Assembly (NCBI GenBank): GCA_905612335.1
Contig: CAJQRT010000026.1
Span: forward strand, 18,503 to 82,502
Direction: 5' to 3'
Source: an uncultured Candidatus Pelagibacter sp.
GTDB taxonomy: Bacteria; Pseudomonadota; Alphaproteobacteria; Pelagibacterales; Pelagibacteraceae
Length of the DNA stretch: 64,000 nt
This document shows, piece after piece, positions 8,745 through 15,006 of this stretch. A model generated the notes under the pieces. That model searched no databases and had not been told where the DNA came from. It saw nothing but the letters and a program-made list of their open reading frames with translations. Numbering within the stretch: the first letter of the stretch is position 1; every line of letters begins with the position of its first letter. A program made the translations under genes and the position numbers.

Positions 8745-9520
8745 TGAAAAAAACCTTATTAGAAAAAACAGCAGATAAATTAGTTAATGCATTTATTAAT
8801 AATAAAACAATTGCTCCACTTCCATTAAAATTTACAAAAAAACTAAGTGAAGCAGAAAAATTAAGAAAACTTTGTGAAAGTAAAATTTCTGATCCCATAA
8901 TTGGATTTAAAGCTGCAGGAACAGGTATACCTGTCATGAAAAAGCTTAAAGAAAAAAAGCCTTTTTATGCATCAATTTTTAAAAATAATTTTATCAAAAG
9001 TGGTCAAAAAGTAAAAATTAATAAATCTACTTTAGGGATTGAATTAGAGGTTTGTTACCTTGTTAAAAAATCTTTTTTTTCCTCAAAAGGCTTAATTACC
9101 ATGAGTAATGTTACTAAATACATCTCTCATATGGCTCCTTGCATAGAGGTTATTGGTTATAGACAAAGAAAAAAAGGGATAACAAGTTTTGGAGATTTGT
9201 GTAGTGATTTTGGAGCTAATGTTAAGTTTCTTATCGGAAAAAAACAGAAATATAAAAAAATTAATATTGGAAATTTAAAAACAAATATATCTAACAAAAA
9301 AATTAAGCAAAGTGTAGATGGGAATACGAACACTGTTTATATAAATCCTTTAAATGCACTCCGTTTTGTTCTTAATGAGCTGAAGAAAGATAAGATCAAT
9401 CTTAATGAAGATTTTTATATTTTCACTGGTTCAACTGTGGGTGTTGTTCCTATTTTAGGAAAAGGACTATATACAGGTAAAATAGAAAGTTTGGGATCAG
9501 CTAAAGCTATTATTAACTAA
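8744..9520 (+). CDS. Fumarylacetoacetate hydrolase family, 2-keto-4-pentenoate hydratase-like
   Basis: A 258-residue protein of the MhpD-type branch of the FAH family, which hydrates or decarboxylates 2-oxo-enoic acids. Visible landmarks are the IIGFKAAGTG segment near residue 50, the acidic metal-binding pattern GIELEVCYLV near residue 105, PCIEVIGYR near 140, and FTGSTVGVVPI plus a glycine-rich C-terminal turn. Length fits the family. It sits between an M23 peptidase and the M24 creatinase-like gene with one-base TAATG overlaps on both sides. The substrate is unknown. Confidence 0.8.
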   Translation: MKKTLLEKTADKLVNAFINNKTIAPLPLKFTKKLSEAEKLRKLCESKISDPIIGFKAAGTGIPVMKKLKEKKPFYASIFKNNFIKSGQKVKINKSTLGIELEVCYLVKKSFFSSKGLITMSNVTKYISHMAPCIEVIGYRQRKKGITSFGDLCSDFGANVKFLIGKKQKYKKINIGNLKTNISNKKIKQSVDGNTNTVYINPLNALRFVLNELKKDKINLNEDFYIFTGSTVGVVPILGKGLYTGKIESLGSAKAIIN

Positions 9521-10671
9521 TGGCGCTTCACTTTAGCAAAGAAGAGTTTGAAAAAAGAAAGTTAAAAACTTTACAATCTATGAAAGAGCAAAATCTTGAT
9601 GCTCTATTAATGTTTAGACAGGAGTCAATGTTCTGGCTTACAGGCTACGATACTTTTGGTTATGTTTTTTTTCAAACTTTAATATTAGATCAAAAAGGAA
9701 AAGTTATTCTTTTAACAAGGGCTCCAGATTTAAGACAAGCACAAAACACTTCAAATATTGAAGATATAAGAATTTGGGTTGATAAAGATCAGTCAAACCC
9801 AACTGAAGATCTTAAGGGTATTTTAAATGAACTTAATTTAAAGGATAAGAAAGTTGGTATTGAATATGAAGCTTACGGCATGACAGGTCGTAATGCTTTA
9901 AGACTTAATAAATCACTAGAAGGTTATTGTAAAGTGGAAGATCAATCAGAATTAATAACCAAACATAGAGTTATTAAATCTGCTGAAGAAATTATTTATG
10001 TAAAAAAAGCTGCAGAACTTGCAGATAAAGCTCTAGATGAGGCTTGGAAATATACAAAAGCTGGAGCCTCTGAAGCAAAAATTCTAGCTGAAATGCAAAG
10101 AGTAGTTCTTGAAAATGGTGGTGATTATCCTGCTAATGAATATATAATTGGTTCAGGACCTAATGCATTACTTTGCAGATACCAAGCAGAAAAAAGAAAT
10201 TTATCAAATACAGATCAATTAAGTTTGGAATGGGCAGGAACTTTTAAACATTATCATTCTGCAATGTTTAGAACTATTCCTATTGGAAAGACTGACCCAA
10301 AACATATTAAAATGCATGAAGCATGTGTTGAAGCTTTAAATAATTGTGCAAAAACTTTAATACCCGGAAAAACAGCAGGAGATGTCTTTGATATTCACGC
10401 TAAGACTTTTGATGATCTTGGCTATAATAAAGCAAGAATGAATGCATGTGGTTATTCTTTAGGCTCAACTTTTTCACCTAATTGGATGGACTGGCCAATG
10501 CTATACACAGGTAATCCGTATGTCATAACACCGGGTAATGTCTTCTTCATGCACATGATATTGATGGATTCAGACAGTGGTTTAGCCATGAATTTGGGTG
10601 AGACGTACCTTGTAACAGAGAATGGTAACGAAAGATTAGGTAAGCAAAAACTGGATTTAGTAGTCTTATAG
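9520..10671 (+). CDS. M24 family hydrolase, creatinase / ectoine hydrolase (DoeA)-like
   Basis: A 383-residue protein with the two-domain pita-bread architecture: an N-terminal creatinase domain (MFRQESMFWLTGYDTFG) and a C-terminal M24 domain. The metal ligands of aminopeptidases are mostly absent: the His of GHGxG reads GYSLG, and the aspartate strand reads SLEWAG...HSAMFRT. This matches metal-independent creatinase and ectoine-hydrolase (DoeA) relatives, as does the tail WMDWPML, FFMHMILMDSDSG and MNLGETYLVT. Ectoine or another N-acyl or cyclic amidine compound is the best guess; no doeB is nearby. The last 186 bases are duplicated at 12818-13003. Final gene of the six-gene chain. Confidence 0.85.
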   Translation: MALHFSKEEFEKRKLKTLQSMKEQNLDALLMFRQESMFWLTGYDTFGYVFFQTLILDQKGKVILLTRAPDLRQAQNTSNIEDIRIWVDKDQSNPTEDLKGILNELNLKDKKVGIEYEAYGMTGRNALRLNKSLEGYCKVEDQSELITKHRVIKSAEEIIYVKKAAELADKALDEAWKYTKAGASEAKILAEMQRVVLENGGDYPANEYIIGSGPNALLCRYQAEKRNLSNTDQLSLEWAGTFKHYHSAMFRTIPIGKTDPKHIKMHEACVEALNNCAKTLIPGKTAGDVFDIHAKTFDDLGYNKARMNACGYSLGSTFSPNWMDWPMLYTGNPYVITPGNVFFMHMILMDSDSGLAMNLGETYLVTENGNERLGKQKLDLVVL

Positions 10672-10676
10672 GCCTC

Positions 10677-10690
10677 CAGTCTCTAGTCTG
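10677..10690. repeat. 14-bp direct repeat, left copy
   Basis: The sequence cagtctctagtctg occurs here, 5 bases after the M24 stop, and again at 12659-12672, immediately beyond the upstream module of the TPR-methyltransferase gene. A diverged relative (gtttctagttagtttctag) follows the duplicated M24 tail near 13011. The pair brackets the TPR gene like a junction footprint. Confidence 0.7.
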
Positions 10691-10702
10691 TCTCTAGTCA
10701 TC

Positions 10703-10750
10703 CTATAAAATCCTATAACCCAGAACCAATATCGATAGAAGTTTTTTCAT
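10703..10750 (-). pseudogene. Signal-peptide-like gene-start remnant (copy 1)
   Basis: A minus-strand ATG opens MKKLLSILVLGYRIL and then a stop, 15 codons in all. It is related to the intact start of the hydrolase gene at 14144 (MKKILGIVVLGLL) and to two further remnants at 13045-13086 and 14819-14854. Interpreted as a decayed 5' end of a secreted-protein gene; a functional micropeptide is not excluded. Confidence 0.5.
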
Positions 10751-10795
10751 TAATCTTTAATATAATAATTGCAAATTTTTAAATCAGATTTTAAA

Positions 10796-10835
10796 TGTGA
10801 GCTAGTGTCAGGAAGTGTGAGGTAGTGTGATCCTC
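10796..10835. repeat. Four imperfect 10-bp tandem repeats
   Basis: Four consecutive units: tgtgagctag, tgtcaggaag, tgtgaggtag, tgtgatcctc. The period equals about one DNA helical turn. The third unit plus following bases also form TGTGAGG...CCTCACA, a 7-bp inverted repeat (10816-10838). Could be a protein-binding site or simple slippage. Confidence 0.7.
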
Positions 10836-10987
10836 ACATGCCTAATTTAAGCGCCTTTTTTCCCTTATTGAATTCAGGAATACCAACGCTTATTCAATGA
10901 CACTCTCACTCAAAACTTGTTTTATCTCTCTAGGTTCGAGTTGTCCCACATAATCCTTTACTTATTTCACTACTTGAGTCAAAAAAA

Positions 10988-12601
10988 TTAAAAATCAAGA
11001 AAATACAAACCACCAATTATAAACTTGTTATTATCCTTTCGAAGATTGGTTGTTTCAAAATGAGATAATTTGTAACCAAATTTATTACATAAACTCTCTA
11101 TATATTTTTTAGAATGAGAATAACGTCCAGATTTTTCAAGAAAAAATCCATCCCTATCAGTATGCTCTGTTGAAAATACAAATTTTCCCTTTGATTTATT
11201 GCGTGACTTTATTAGTTTAAATATTTCAGATAATTCCCCAACATAAGTAAAAACATCGGTTGAGATGAAATAATTAAAGTCTAGATCTTGTGTTGATAAA
11301 TATTCTACAATATCTTTATGTTCTAATTTATCATAAATATTCTTTGCACCTGCCTTTTCAAGCATTGATTTAGATAAATCAATACCTTCAAGATTCGAAC
11401 AATATTTTTTAATCTCATCACCTATTAAACCTGTACCACAACCCAAATCTAAAACTGATCCTAATTGAATATTAGGATTTTTTGCAACAATCAATTCAGT
11501 AATTAAATTGGGAGTTTTATATTTAAGTGTATTGAGCAAGGAATTTTCAAAATTTATAGCATATTTATTAAATAAAGTTTCAACGTATTTTCTTGGTGCA
11601 GAATTAGTTGTTTTTCCAATTAATGCTGAGAGCAAATGTTTAGCCTCAGCATAATCAGGTTTAATTTCTATTGCTTTTTTATAACATATTTTAGCTTCTT
11701 CTATTTTGTTAAGTTTAATTAACAATCCACCCAGATTGTTATGGGCTTCAGCTAAGTTAGGTTTTAATGTTATCGCTTTCCTGCAGCTTGCTTCAGCGTC
11801 ATCTAATTTGCCACGTTCTTTGAGTGTGTTACCCAAGTTATTGTAGGCTTCGGCATAATCAGGTTTTAATGTTATCGCTTTTCTGTAGCTTGCTTCAGAC
11901 TCATCTAATTTGCCAAGTTCTTTGAGTATAACACCCAAGTTACTGTGGGCTTCGGCATAATCTGGCTTTAATGTTATCGCTTTTCTGTAACTTACTTCAG
12001 CTTCATCTAATTTTCCAAGCTCTTGCAGCGTGACACCCAAGTTACTGTGGGCTTTGACATAATCTGGTTTTAATTCTATAACTTTTCTGTAACTAGTTTC
12101 AGCTTCATCTAATTTTCCAAGCTCTTTAAATATAACACCCAAGTTACTGTGAGCTTCGATAAAGTCAGGTTTTAATGTTATTGCTTGTGTATAGCTTGCT
12201 TCAGCTTCATCTAATCTTTCTAATGTTTTGAGTGTGATACCCAAGTTGTTGTGGGCTTCGGCATAGTCAGGTTTTAATGTTATCGCTTGTCTATAGCTTG
12301 CTTCAGCCTCATCTAATCTTCCGAGTTCTTTTAGCGTGTTACCCAAGTTATTGTGAGCTATTGCATCCTGTGGTCCAAATTCTATAGATTTTTGACTAGC
12401 AATTAGCGATCTATTTATCCTACCGTTTTTTTTTAATATAACGGCAAGTACTTTCCATGAAAATGGATGTTCAGGAAATTCTTGAGTGATGGATAGCGAT
12501 AGTTTTTCAGCATTAACATATCGTCCTGCTTGATAGTACTCTAGGAGATTATTTAATTGCTGCTTAGATGGTTCTAAAGAATTAACATAGATTTTTTTCA
12601 T
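10988..12601 (-). CDS. TPR-repeat protein with C-terminal SAM-dependent methyltransferase domain
   Basis: A 537-residue two-part protein. Residues about 1-79 contain degenerate helical repeats, then seven near-identical 34-residue TPR units follow to about residue 317 (consensus AEAHNNLGxxLKELGKLDEA). The C-terminal part is a class I methyltransferase with motif I VLDLGCGTGLIG near residue 388, an acidic strand-2 end (GIDLSKSML), and a DVFTYVG motif-IV region. TPRs usually mediate protein contacts and here may recruit the methylation target, which is unknown. No signal peptide. The gene is a single transcription unit, convergent with the M24 gene, inserted between the M24 gene and a partial copy of its 3' end, and carries an upstream module shared with the hydrolase gene at 14144. 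Confidence 0.88.
   Translation of the reverse strand: MKKIYVNSLEPSKQQLNNLLEYYQAGRYVNAEKLSLSITQEFPEHPFSWKVLAVILKKNGRINRSLIASQKSIEFGPQDAIAHNNLGNTLKELGRLDEAEASYRQAITLKPDYAEAHNNLGITLKTLERLDEAEASYTQAITLKPDFIEAHSNLGVIFKELGKLDEAETSYRKVIELKPDYVKAHSNLGVTLQELGKLDEAEVSYRKAITLKPDYAEAHSNLGVILKELGKLDESEASYRKAITLKPDYAEAYNNLGNTLKERGKLDDAEASCRKAITLKPNLAEAHNNLGGLLIKLNKIEEAKICYKKAIEIKPDYAEAKHLLSALIGKTTNSAPRKYVETLFNKYAINFENSLLNTLKYKTPNLITELIVAKNPNIQLGSVLDLGCGTGLIGDEIKKYCSNLEGIDLSKSMLEKAGAKNIYDKLEHKDIVEYLSTQDLDFNYFISTDVFTYVGELSEIFKLIKSRNKSKGKFVFSTEHTDRDGFFLEKSGRYSHSKKYIESLCNKFGYKLSHFETTNLRKDNNKFIIGGLYFLDF
11650..12364. repeat. 102-bp tandem coding repeats (seven TPR units)
   Basis: Within the TPR-methyltransferase gene, seven consecutive 102-bp units remain very similar at the DNA level, including synonymous positions (phrases such as ggttttaatgttatcgcttt recur). 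This indicates recent expansion or gene conversion among the units. Confidence 0.8.
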
Positions 12602-12658
12602 TAACTCAACCTACCAAACCTTAAATCATGTGTCTAGGTGATGGAAAAAGAGCACCTT
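12592..12658 (-). promoter_or_regulatory. Upstream module shared with the hydrolase gene (copy at TPR gene)
   Basis: The 60 or so bases before the TPR-methyltransferase start, plus its first four codons (MKKI), closely resemble 14133-14202 before the hydrolase gene. The best block, tgtctaggtgatggaaaaag followed by agca on the plus strand, differs at two positions from its partner. Both copies lie directly upstream of a minus-strand gene, so a conserved promoter/leader is likely; no canonical -10/-35 pair stands out. Confidence 0.6.
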
Positions 12659-12672
12659 CAGTCTCTAGTCTG
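12659..12672. repeat. 14-bp direct repeat, right copy
   Basis: Perfect second copy of cagtctctagtctg (first at 10677-10690), located just outside the upstream module of the TPR gene. The two copies enclose 1.97 kb containing that gene. Confidence 0.7.
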
Positions 12673-12817
12673 ATACCTAGTTTGCTCAAGGTCTTAGTAG
12701 TTATATGGGCCTTTATTTCTAAACAAATTTATTTTGAAAATCAAAAATTACTACTGTTGCAACAATTATAGAGACACAGTGAGTCTTGATGGGATTTAAA
12801 AAATGAATACAGAATGC

Positions 12818-13003
12818 ATGGACTGGCCAATGCTATACACTGATAATCCGTATGTCATAACACCAGGCAACGTGTTCTTCATGCACATGATATTAATGGA
12901 TTCAGACAATGAATTAGCCATGAATTTGGGTGAGACCTATCTTGTAACCGATAATGGTAACGAAAGATTAGGTAAGCAAAAACTGGATTTAGTGGTCTTA
13001 TAG
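12818..13003 (+). pseudogene. Duplicated 3' end of the M24 (DoeA-like) gene
   Basis: These 186 bases align without gaps to 10486-10671, the last 61 codons and stop of the intact M24 gene, with about 15 mismatches by eye (roughly 92% identity). The open frame from an ATG at 12803 reads MNTECMDWPMLYTDNPYV and ends identically (GKQKLDLVVL). It lacks the whole N-terminal domain and most of the M24 fold, so it cannot be an enzyme. The six bases before 12818 match those before a second ATG at 10446 in the parent, consistent with an additional 40-base deletion between two ATGs. Most changes are synonymous or conservative, suggesting decay began recently or that gene conversion occurs. Confidence 0.85.
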
Positions 13004-13044
13004 GGCTGTGGTTTCTAGTTAGTTTCTAGTCATCCTATAAAACC

Positions 13045-13086
13045 CTACAACAAACCCAGAACCACGATCCCTAAAAAATTTTTCAT
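13045..13086 (-). pseudogene. Signal-peptide-like gene-start remnant (copy 2)
   Basis: A minus-strand ATG at 13086 opens MKNFLGIVVLGLL and stops at once. The DNA block cccagaaccacgatccctaa is identical to the start region of the hydrolase gene (14112-14131). It follows the duplicated M24 tail at the same relative place where copy 1 follows the intact M24 gene. Confidence 0.6.
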
Positions 13087-13091
13087 ACTTC

Positions 13092-13247
13092 ATGATACCT
13101 GATATCGGATACAGAGTCCTAGGGATATTAGGGTTGGTTTTTATAGGTCAACTGTCTGTAATTCCAGTTGCCTGTTGCTTGTGGTGGTGGCCAAGTTCAG
13201 TGAACACGACTGACGGAACGACACTAGAAAATTTATTTCTAAAATAA
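13092..13247 (+). CDS. Possible 51-residue membrane peptide
   Basis: An open frame of 52 codons with ATG start reads MIPDIGYRVLGILGLVFIGQ, one likely membrane helix, then a Cys/Trp-rich turn (VACCLWWWP). The stretch is visibly richer in G and C than the surroundings and overlaps the end of the convergent hydrolase gene by 9 bases. No ribosome-binding site is clear and I recognise no family. It may be a small gene brought in with the repeats or a chance frame. Confidence 0.25.
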   Translation: MIPDIGYRVLGILGLVFIGQLSVIPVACCLWWWPSSVNTTDGTTLENLFLK

Positions 13248-14144
13248 ACTTTCTATATATTTGATTATATCATTATTTTTGAGATCAAGCGCTGCATAAC
13301 ACTTATGCAGAACTATCGCGTGATAACCACCCTCTTTGTGATTTGGTTTACAGTCTGATTTAGTTAAGTTTACAAATTTAACATTACTTGAGTTTGAAAA
13401 TAATAAATAATCTTTTGGCGCATTAAATTCATCTTTATCATGTGTAATAATAATTGCATTTAATTTAGAGGTATTTCCAAAGCCATAATATCTTATATCT
13501 TCCCACCAAGGCCATTCTTTTCTATTTTTAACTGTGCCACCAGCTCCTGGCTGAAGGCCTATAACTCCATCTATTAATTCAGGAAAATTTGTTTTTATTT
13601 TAAATGATTGCCAGCCTCCAGATGAATGTCCTGCAAGAACAATATTTCCAAATCCTTGTTCTACAAAACTATCAATTTTTTCTTTAATAATTTTTAATTT
13701 TTGATTTTGTTTTTGTTTTTTAATTAAAAAATTACCCTTTTTGTCAGATAAACTTAAATCTAATGTTCCAGATTTCTCGTAAGCCTTCCACATTTTGTTT
13801 TGCTCTTTTTCAGACCATCCCCTTACACCTGAACAAAGACGATAAATTTTTATACTAAATTCTTTAATTTTTTGGTCATGCAGATTACGTATAACTGGAG
13901 GAACCTTATTCTCACCAGCTAAACATTTATCAATTTTTTGATCGTAATCAGAGCCATGGGTATAAATAATTAAGATAGTATTTTTTTTTTCAGTTATTTT
14001 TTCAACAGCATAAGCTTTACCTTTGCGATCAATGAAGCTGCTATTTTTTGAAACCTTCTTTAAATCTTTATCAAATTGAGAAGCTGCATAAACTTCACTG
14101 CTGAATAACAAACCCAGAACCACGATCCCTAAAATCTTTTTCAT
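13239..14144 (-). CDS. Secreted alpha/beta hydrolase-like protein
   Basis: About 301 residues from the ATG at 14144. A clear signal peptide (MKKILGIVVLGLLFSSEVYA, cleavage before ASQ) sends it to the periplasm. The strand-turn-helix LAGHSSGGW near residue 170 is the nucleophile elbow GxSxG of alpha/beta hydrolases; IIITHDKDEFNAP supplies a plausible acid and GGYHAIVLHKC the late histidine. IIYTHGSDYD forms the oxyanion region. It is an esterase/lipase-like enzyme of unknown substrate. Its signal-peptide coding bases and its upstream 60 bases are both repeated elsewhere in the region, marking it as part of a cassette-like cluster. A TTG start two codons upstream is less likely. Confidence 0.75.
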   Translation of the reverse strand: MKKILGIVVLGLLFSSEVYAASQFDKDLKKVSKNSSFIDRKGKAYAVEKITEKKNTILIIYTHGSDYDQKIDKCLAGENKVPPVIRNLHDQKIKEFSIKIYRLCSGVRGWSEKEQNKMWKAYEKSGTLDLSLSDKKGNFLIKKQKQNQKLKIIKEKIDSFVEQGFGNIVLAGHSSGGWQSFKIKTNFPELIDGVIGLQPGAGGTVKNRKEWPWWEDIRYYGFGNTSKLNAIIITHDKDEFNAPKDYLLFSNSSNVKFVNLTKSDCKPNHKEGGYHAIVLHKCYAALDLKNNDIIKYIESLF

Positions 14145-14202
14145 AATCAAACCCTAGCAAACCTTTAATCAGATGTCTATGTAATGGAAAAAGAGCAATT
14201 GA
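14133..14202 (-). promoter_or_regulatory. Upstream module shared with the TPR gene (copy at hydrolase gene)
   Basis: Partner of 12592-12658. The plus-strand block tgtctatgtaatggaaaaag plus agca is shared with two substitutions, and weaker similarity extends to the ATG and first codons. The shared position relative to two unrelated genes argues for a transcriptional or translational leader. Confidence 0.6.
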
Positions 14203-14333
14203 GTTTTTATTCAATTAAATAATTTAATTAATGTCTAATTGAGAAATAACGTCTACTTTTTTAAAATTTCTACTATTAAAATATTCCACCCAAAGTTCTT
14301 GCACCAAATGCCTAGATAAATTAAACTTACAAT

Positions 14334-14804: not shown

Positions 14805-14818
14805 TCCCAAATTAAATC

Positions 14819-14854
14819 CTAACTCAGAACCACAATCACTAAAAGTTTTTTCAT
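14819..14854 (-). pseudogene. Signal-peptide-like gene-start remnant (copy 3), coupled to upstream gene
   Basis: A minus-strand ATG at 14854 overlaps the stop of the 50-residue gene as TAATG and reads MKKLLVIVVLS then stop. Same family as the remnants at 10703-10750 and 13045-13086 and the intact start at 14144. It would be translated by coupling, yielding an 11-residue hydrophobic peptide. Confidence 0.45.
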
Positions 14855-15006
14855 TAATCTATAATCCCTGCTAAATTTTTAGCAGCTTTTTTTTTGGAGC
14901 CTGCAGTTAAACCTTTGACATAGGCTGTTGCTATTCTTTCTGGATTTTTAATATTTCTTTTTTTAAATTTTTTTAATAAATCTTTGTAATTAGGTTTTCT
15001 AGGCAT
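14854..15006 (-). CDS. Small basic protein, 50 residues
   Basis: An uninterrupted 51-codon frame starts at an ATG that overlaps the stop of the preceding membrane-protein gene (TAATG at 15006). It reads MPRKPNYKDLLKKFKKRNIK and continues with Lys/Ala-rich sequence to GIID. The overlap geometry at both ends and the coherent basic composition support expression. No family recognised; it could bind nucleic acid or an acidic partner, but this is only suggested by charge. Confidence 0.55.
   Translation of the reverse strand: MPRKPNYKDLLKKFKKRNIKNPERIATAYVKGLTAGSKKKAAKNLAGIID

What the first reader, a model, noticed from the sequence alone, without database searches (positions are those of the whole stretch)
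10486..13003. A second copy of the 3' end of the M24 gene flanks the TPR-methyltransferase gene
The last 186 bases of the DoeA-like gene (10486-10671) recur gap-free at 12818-13003 with about 15 differences, 2.33 kb downstream and in the same orientation. Between them lies one unrelated gene on the opposite strand. Similarity continues past the stop into 'ctagtcatcctataaaa' (10693 and 13027) and into a signal-peptide remnant. This looks like a direct-repeat-bounded cassette: either a tandem duplication later replaced by a new gene, or insertion at the gene's 3' end that carried its own copy of the end, as some integrating elements do. No integrase is present.
Basis: seen in the sequence. Interest (0 to 1): 0.72.

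Follow-up and report, generated by a model that had tools for sequence, protein, structure and literature searches.

The report
Integrase-less gene cassettes in SAR11
The repeated gene end marks the two ends of a small integrated gene cassette in a SAR11-type ocean bacterium; cassettes with the same end signals sit at other sites in its relatives, carry no integrase, and share their end signals with satellite-like elements that do carry one.

Summary
The repeat is real: 237 nt at 89% identity, 15 differences in the 186-nt gene end. It bounds an integrated cassette (10486-12817, 2,332 bp) that entered the M24 gene at codon 323 and brought its own 3' end. The displaced end (12818-13003) carries the left-end signals of an older cassette.

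In genome G346 an independent cassette sits at the same base, and its displaced end still matches its own clade. G182 has the left end without cargo, G001 other cargo.

The end signals (two tags 11 bp apart, then ATCCTATAAAATCCTA) occur in 91 of 300 genomes of the genus; identified sites are tRNA-Leu(UAA), tRNA-Ser(UGA), the 5' end of a small gene, and M24. Left and right tags match in 27 of 36 cassettes, 4.2 expected by shuffling. 95 of 97 cargo ORFs run from right to left end. No cassette ORF matched the integrase profile.

Satellite-like elements with a ~550-aa integrase carry similar attachment sites at three of these targets. I infer mobilisation in trans. No helper for M24 was found; mobility is untested.

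The parts
9520..10671 (+). M24 (creatinase/prolidase-type) gene, target of the insertion; its last 186 nt come from the cassette
   Evidence: Pfam M24 and Creatinase_N; 383 aa in relatives
10486..12817 (+). Younger cassette, 2,332 bp, from crossover to crossover
   Evidence: repeat spacing; same crossover base in G346
10486..10671 (+). M24 3' end brought by the younger cassette
   Evidence: by analogy with G346
10680..10718 (+). Left end of the younger cassette: tags TCTCTAGT at 10680 and 10691, then ATCCTATAAAATCCTATAA from 10700
10988..12601 (-). Cargo gene: TPR repeats plus methyltransferase domain, 537 aa, read from right end to left end
12612..12636 (-). Leader-like sequence shared with other cassettes, upstream of the cargo start
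   Evidence: one mismatch to the pattern
12662..12817 (+). Right end of the younger cassette: tag TCTCTAGT at 12662, a degenerate second tag TACCTAGT at 12674, then about 135 nt to the crossover
   Evidence: 49 of 58 bases match the stretch behind M24 in G359; tags by eye
12818..13003 (+). Displaced M24 3' end, the end of the gene before the younger insertion
13012..13047 (+). Left end of an older cassette: tags TTTCTAGT at 13012 and 13023, then ATCCTATAAAACCCTA
13239..14150 (-). Probable cargo of the older cassette: exported protein of 303 aa, weak hydrolase-like match below cut-off; its right end was not found
   Evidence: absent from G182, replaced in G001

Best explanation
SHOWN by sequence: 10486-12817 is an integrated gene cassette with left and right ends and no integrase. 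It entered M24 at codon 323; the cassette's own M24 3' end now completes the gene and the previous end was pushed to the far side. That previous end carries the left-end signals of an older cassette whose right end was not found, so at least two insertions happened at one site. The same end signals bound cassettes at tRNA-Leu(UAA), tRNA-Ser(UGA) and the 5' end of a small protein gene in other genomes, where the cassette also supplies the gene part it displaces (shown for tRNA-Leu and the small gene). INFERRED: the tags, and the 10-bp repeats near the core at the tRNA-Leu and small-gene sites, are arm-type binding sites of a lambda-type tyrosine integrase; that integrase is supplied in trans by satellite-like elements with similar attachment sites; repeated insertion into the restored target builds arrays; cargo is expressed from a leader next to the right end.
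For: M24 site: G346 has both ends, 2,550 bp from crossover to crossover, the same crossover base and a displaced end; gene body 93-94% and displaced end 88-91% identical to five clade mates, inserted end 78-82% to them and 91% to G114. G182 lacks cargo, G001 has other cargo. Tags: at the four most variable positions the two tags of a left end agree in 87-90% (n=143), 31-47% after shuffling; left and right tags identical in 27 of 36, mean 7.61 of 8, largest of 5,000 shuffles 6.56. 95 of 97 ORFs one way. Displaced gene parts in arrays. Helpers with tag pairs: G160, G208 (tRNA-Leu), G366 (tRNA-Ser, directly before a cassette), the IMG/VR contig L308 (joined site); G610 for the small gene, 91% over 80 nt to a cassette's right end plus core. 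Integrase model: like Tn1549 Int, and N-terminally like the arm-binding domain of HPI integrase, the latter at E 0.069 only.
Against: No helper at M24: integrase hits in 8 of 399 genomes (E 1e-3, some weak or broken) and 4 of 397 (E 1e-20; overlapping sets), none of those examined at M24; no M24 end in viral contigs or phages. In G242 and G198, which carry the integrase, no tag pair of the helper was found, and G610's left tags depart from the common form. The window's right end has no clear 10-bp repeats and its second tag is degenerate. Older right ends are missing in the window, G001 and G182. The end pattern is absent from viral contigs. G016, without end signal, is as close to the G346 inserted end (84%) as several with it. 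Shuffles do not allow for related cassettes counted more than once. Excision, circular cassettes and integrase binding were not tested. G001 and the window differ at a shared signal peptide, so homologous recombination also swaps cargo.
Confidence: 0.8

Rival explanations
1. Tandem duplication of the M24 3' end, with a new gene later placed between the copies.
For: Two copies in direct orientation, 91.9% identical in the 186 nt; the window alone cannot exclude it.
Against: In G346 the copy joined to the gene body is foreign and the displaced one native; end signals behind both window copies; same end signals at tRNA genes and another gene.
Confidence: 0.05
2. Cassettes are moved by homologous recombination between their shared ends, leaders and signal peptides, without any integrase.
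For: G001 and the window switch cargo exactly at a shared signal peptide; G056 and G359 look like deletions between tag pairs.
Against: A fixed crossover base with a displaced native end and helpers bearing an integrase beside the same site layout point to site-specific insertion. Both processes may act.
Confidence: 0.12
3. Cassettes are decayed remains of helper elements that integrated themselves and then lost integrase and primase; they no longer move.
For: Same site layout as helpers; several incomplete right ends.
Against: Matched tags at both ends, one-way cargo and cassettes of one cargo type with one tag in several genomes suggest units kept as such.
Confidence: 0.2

Closest known systems
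Cis-mobilizable elements (CIMEs) and site-specific accretion, e.g. at the 3' end of fda in Streptococcus thermophilus (recalled, from no call)
   Same: Integrase-less stretches between attachment sites, tandem arrays at the 3' end of a protein gene, related to integrase-bearing elements
   Different: Here the integrase-bearing relatives are satellite-like; several targets share one tag system; tags vary together; cargo runs one way
Tycheposons of Prochlorococcus (Hackl et al. 2023, recalled; only citing papers seen)
   Same: tRNA targets, tyrosine recombinase, satellite and cargo forms in streamlined ocean bacteria
   Different: The cassettes lack the recombinase and are 0.7-5.8 kb; two of four targets are protein genes. 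Whether the helpers are tycheposon relatives was not tested
Additive flexible genomic islands with tRNA fragment repeats in Ca. Actinomarinales and Methylophilaceae (PMC7771536, PMC10872708; passages read)
   Same: Small cassettes at tRNA genes, marked by repeats of part of the tRNA
   Different: The passages I saw give no end signals, tags, helper integrase or protein-gene targets
Integron cassettes and CALINs (PMC11389934, passage read)
   Same: Arrays of integrase-less cassettes that depend on an integrase in trans; one gene orientation (recalled)
   Different: attC sites were not searched for; here insertion restores a host gene part
Pelagiphages HTVC105P, HTVC109P and uncultured S35C6
   Same: Core from the tRNA-Leu(UAA) 5' half beside an integrase; the match is 100% over 38 nt in HTVC105P
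   Different: Arms differ; integrase shorter (297 aa in two of them) and only weakly like the helper profile

Membership tests
Genomic island that restores its target gene | Restored gene at one end and displaced fragment at the other mark the ends | tested here: met
   window and G346 at M24; arrays at tRNA-Leu and the small gene. Definition from the abstract of PMC4383910 in a listing
Genomic island that restores its target gene | Encodes its own integrase | tested here: not met
   2,704 ORFs of 100 aa or more: hits only in helpers, the broken G199 copy, two weak integrases (G288, G293), three phages and one weak island integrase
CIME-type element (recalled definition) | Lies between attachment sites related to those of an integrase-bearing element, without integrase | tested here: met
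   for tRNA-Leu, tRNA-Ser and small-gene cassettes; inconclusive for M24, where no helper was found
CIME-type element (recalled definition) | Derived from and mobilised with an ICE or IME | not tested
   the G160 helper has primase and RusA-like genes; conjugation genes were not searched for
Tycheposon (recalled definition) | Hallmark tyrosine recombinase on the element | tested here: not met
   no integrase hit in cassettes; helpers have one, its relation to tycheposon recombinases was not tested
Integron cassette / CALIN | attC sites recombined by IntI | not tested
   no attC or IntI search was made
Insertion sequence or MITE | Terminal inverted repeats and short target duplications | tested here: not met
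   tag pairs are in direct orientation at both ends; the duplicated stretch is a 186-nt gene end with 15 differences

The most novel reading that the evidence does not exclude
SAR11 bacteria host a shared cassette economy: many small integrase-free cassettes, each labelled at both ends with a matching tag, are inserted into four or more host genes by integrases that only rare satellite elements encode. The tag would name which integrase may move a cassette, and the cassettes would be a main route by which exported proteins and phage defences enter these streamlined ocean genomes.
Probability: 0.5. Interest if true: 0.87.

Novelty: new variant of a known kind. Interest (0 to 1): 0.77.

Why it matters
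SAR11 are among the most abundant cells on Earth and are seen as streamlined, with few mobile elements (general knowledge). A tagged, integrase-free cassette family whose end signal occurs in 91 of 300 sampled genomes would be a concrete, testable route for their gene exchange, including phage-defence genes (Zorya II, type I restriction and GmrSD matches in the cargo). If tags set integrase specificity, helper and cassette could be paired from sequence and tested in a laboratory strain.

Tried and rejected
Tandem duplication was rejected on G346. An integrase beside the cassettes was sought with PF00589: 60 of 80 motif genomes have a hit, mostly one protein of about 306-328 aa away from the motif; G242's helper integrase, beside a cassette, was found only later with the G160 protein. 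Other integrase islands (G105 at tRNA-Leu(UAG), G220 and G164 near tRNA-Gly, G011, G255, G329) show no ends: the scan was too narrow (it missed G160 too), and the tag-pair scan found none in them. Pelagiphage integrases share the tRNA-Leu core but not the arms. Viral contigs gave nothing with the end pattern, the G160 integrase or the M24 end; the integrase profile gave one contig. A PDB sequence search with the profile gave two designed repeat proteins only, judged spurious. Rfam found nothing in the window. The search with the TPR cargo hit mainly TPR repeats.

Controls and dropped rows. Tag-pair scan over all 327 sequences held: 322 pairs against 85 in reversed sequences, so single pairs away from a displaced gene part can be chance (loci overlap). 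Of 44 linked pairs, 8 were dropped: five whose second pair is another left end (L061 second, L065, L142, L180, L214) and three unclear (L072 first, L141, L162). With all 44, 30 are identical and the mean is 7.41 against 5.84. One search used 38 stretches: 33 of the 36 pairs (not L115, L152, L229), three left-to-next-left stretches (L061 second, L065, L142), G346 and the window; without those three it is 92 of 94 ORFs. Searches scanned 60 of 67 cargo representatives, show only the first 25 of 85 and 236 families, and do not say which member matched; the loci I name for them rest on my reading of the ORFs. Of 144 left ends, 126 were assigned by flank sequence and 18 not; of these 18, four show the tRNA-Ser flank and one a tRNA-Leu variant by eye.
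Full report
OBSERVATION. The last 186 bases of the M24 gene (10486-10671) recur at 12818-13003 without gaps and with exactly 15 differences; 14 codons differ, 10 synonymously. The similarity extends to 237 nt at 89% and is the longest direct repeat of the window outside the TPR tandem. One gene on the minus strand lies between, 537 aa with TPR repeats and a methyltransferase domain. No ORF of 100 aa or more in the window matches the helper-integrase profile.

THE SITE IN RELATIVES. The window's own assembly is not held. In G182 the M24 end with its end signal is followed, after about 120 unaligned bases, by window position 14290 onward at 97% identity. In G001 the same end is followed by about 4.1 kb of other genes, and colinearity returns at window 14101, inside the signal peptide of the gene at 13239-14150. 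G056 and G359 have an M24 end fused to what is a right-end remainder elsewhere: 68 of 70 bases match the right end in G346, and 49 of 58 match the window's right end. Of 40 M24 loci looked at, window included, nine have end signals behind the stop: window, G001, G182, G346, G359, G103, G114, G056 and, shortened, G373. For 19 of the others this was judged from where the alignment stops, and the genomes were chosen for strong or double matches, so this is no frequency. The 237-base repeat matches 193 of 399 genomes of the genus, some only over the end signal.

A COMPLETE CASE. G346 has gene body, foreign 3' end, left end, two genes, right end and displaced 3' end, 2,550 bp from crossover to crossover, starting at the same base as in the window. 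The gene body is 93-94% identical to five clade mates, the displaced end 88-91%, the inserted end 78-82%; the inserted end is 91% identical to that of G114 and 82-86% to the other M24 genes with end signals, but also 84% to G016, which has none. So the element brought a foreign gene end. Among eight M24 genes with end signals the 3' end is on average 3.5 points more alike than the body (28 pairs), against -0.1 among 18 without (153 pairs): the effect is small. Third-position GC is 0.47 in both window copies and 0.15 in the body, but it is higher in the 3' end than in the body of all M24 genes compared (0.21-0.52), so GC proves little.

THE END SIGNALS. The left end is a tag (8-mer, mostly NNNCNNGT) repeated at 11-bp spacing, followed by ATCCTATAAAATCCTA. 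The pattern occurs in 91 of 300 genomes of the genus at up to 2 mismatches, the reversed pattern in 10. Of 144 distinct left ends in the loci held then, 75 have the tRNA-Leu(UAA) flank, 41 the small-gene flank, 8 the tRNA-Ser(UGA) flank, 2 the M24 flank, 18 none of these (tRNAs identified in a subset). At the four most variable positions the two tags agree in 87-90% of 143 left ends against 31-47% after shuffling. The right end has again a tag pair, about 100 bp further repeats of 10 bp (clear at tRNA-Leu and the small gene), then the core. Left and right tags are identical in 27 of 36 cassettes (mean 4.2 by shuffling, at most 11 in 5,000). The shuffles do not allow for kinship among cassettes.

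HOW THE TARGET IS RESTORED. At tRNA-Leu the core is the anticodon loop and the cassette carries a new 5' half with its upstream region; in arrays the displaced 5' halves lie between cassettes. At the small gene the cassette carries a new 5' end with start codon. At M24 it carries a new 3' end.

CARGO. In 38 stretches (677-5845 bp for the 36 other than G346 and the window) there are 97 ORFs of 80 aa or more; 95 run from right end to left end, the window's gene among them. A crude signal-peptide pattern fits 35 of 97. Sixty of 67 cluster representatives were scanned; matches include restriction and modification proteins, Zorya II components, GmrSD, MORN, Sel1, autotransporter and trypsin-like domains. 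A leader-like sequence recurs just inside a number of right ends upstream of the cargo start, in the window at 12636-12612; of 49 matches at up to 4 errors, 18 have ATGARRA within 70 nt, and many of those with 4 errors look like chance.

HELPERS. No cassette ORF matched the integrase profile. Elements with a 531-570 aa integrase lie at the same targets: G160 and G208 in tRNA-Leu(UAA), with a left tag pair and a right end of the cassette type; G366 in tRNA-Ser(UGA), with a left tag pair, one matching tag at its right end, and a cassette directly behind it; G242 in tRNA-Leu(UAA) beside a cassette, but with no tag pair of its own found; G198 at tRNA-Ser(GCU), no tag pair found; and G610, from another genus of the family, whose joined site matches the right end of one small-gene cassette over 197 nt at 76% (E 6e-34) and of another over 80 nt at 91%, with left tags GGCATAGT that depart from the common form. 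An IMG/VR contig of 9,013 bp with a 99-bp terminal repeat, hence probably circular, holds the joined tRNA-Leu site with a tag pair. Primase and RusA-like matches were obtained for G160; the others have genes of similar size and place, not scanned. The integrase has 138 database relatives at E up to 0.001. Its model (mean pLDDT 79.8) matches tyrosine recombinases, best Tn1549 Int, and in its N-terminal part the arm-binding domain of HPI integrase, the latter only at E 0.069. Integrase hits are rare: 8 of 399 genomes at E up to 0.001, including weak and broken ones, and 4 of 397 at E up to 1e-20 (sets overlap).

WHAT IS SHOWN AND WHAT IS NOT. Shown: insertion at a fixed base, foreign gene end, displaced native end, shared end signals at four targets, matched tags, one-way cargo, no integrase found in cassettes, and integrase elements with a similar site at three of the four targets. 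Inferred: that the integrase binds the tags, acts in trans and is chosen by the tag, and that the leader is a promoter. Open: the helper for M24, the missing older right end, and the lack of clear 10-bp repeats in the window's right end.

LITERATURE. Islands that split and restore a gene are known (PMC4383910, abstract in a listing); small cassettes at tRNA genes with tRNA repeats are described for other streamlined marine bacteria (PMC7771536, PMC10872708; passages). In passages of PMC7318151, PMC11898729 and PMC12416821 I saw no such cassette system in SAR11; PMC12416821 mentions tyrosine recombinases and tRNA genes beside a transferred phn operon in Pelagibacterales. PMC12324425 (abstract and outline) describes a different ocean element. 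Searches whose listings did not show the present system. The library lacks most subscription papers; the tycheposon, VEIME, pelagiphage-integration and CIME originals are only recalled.

CHANGE AFTER CHECKING. Rechecking the helpers showed no tag pair for G242 and G198; confidence in the best explanation went from 0.82 to 0.80.

Noticed in passing
window 14101-14150 versus L073 15265-15314: G001 and the window share promoter and signal peptide of a cargo gene but then differ: cargo swapping inside a conserved signal-peptide sequence.
   Followed up: partly
window 10713-10751, 13049-13087, 14107-14145, 14817-14855: Four copies of a signal-peptide-like sequence on the minus strand, two fused to left ends, one in the gene at 13239-14150 and one downstream without a tag pair.
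   Followed up: partly
cargo ORFs, probably L064, L151, L176, L230 (my reading; the calls do not name the member): Phage-defence matches (Zorya II, type I restriction-modification, GmrSD) among cassette cargo of SAR11 genomes.
   Followed up: partly
L072, L208, L240: Cassettes with rows of pilin-like genes (FTLIELLVVVAIIGILA).
   Followed up: no
L111, L112, L113: Pelagibacter phages HTVC105P, HTVC109P and an uncultured relative use the tRNA-Leu(UAA) core of the cassettes, next to a shorter integrase with different arms.
   Followed up: partly
L256 (G199): Element with an integrase of the helper family broken into two pieces; described only.
   Followed up: no
L296 (G408) 8803-8928: A fragment of the M24 end about 0.8 kb behind an M24 gene that has no end signal, perhaps an old insertion.
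   Followed up: no
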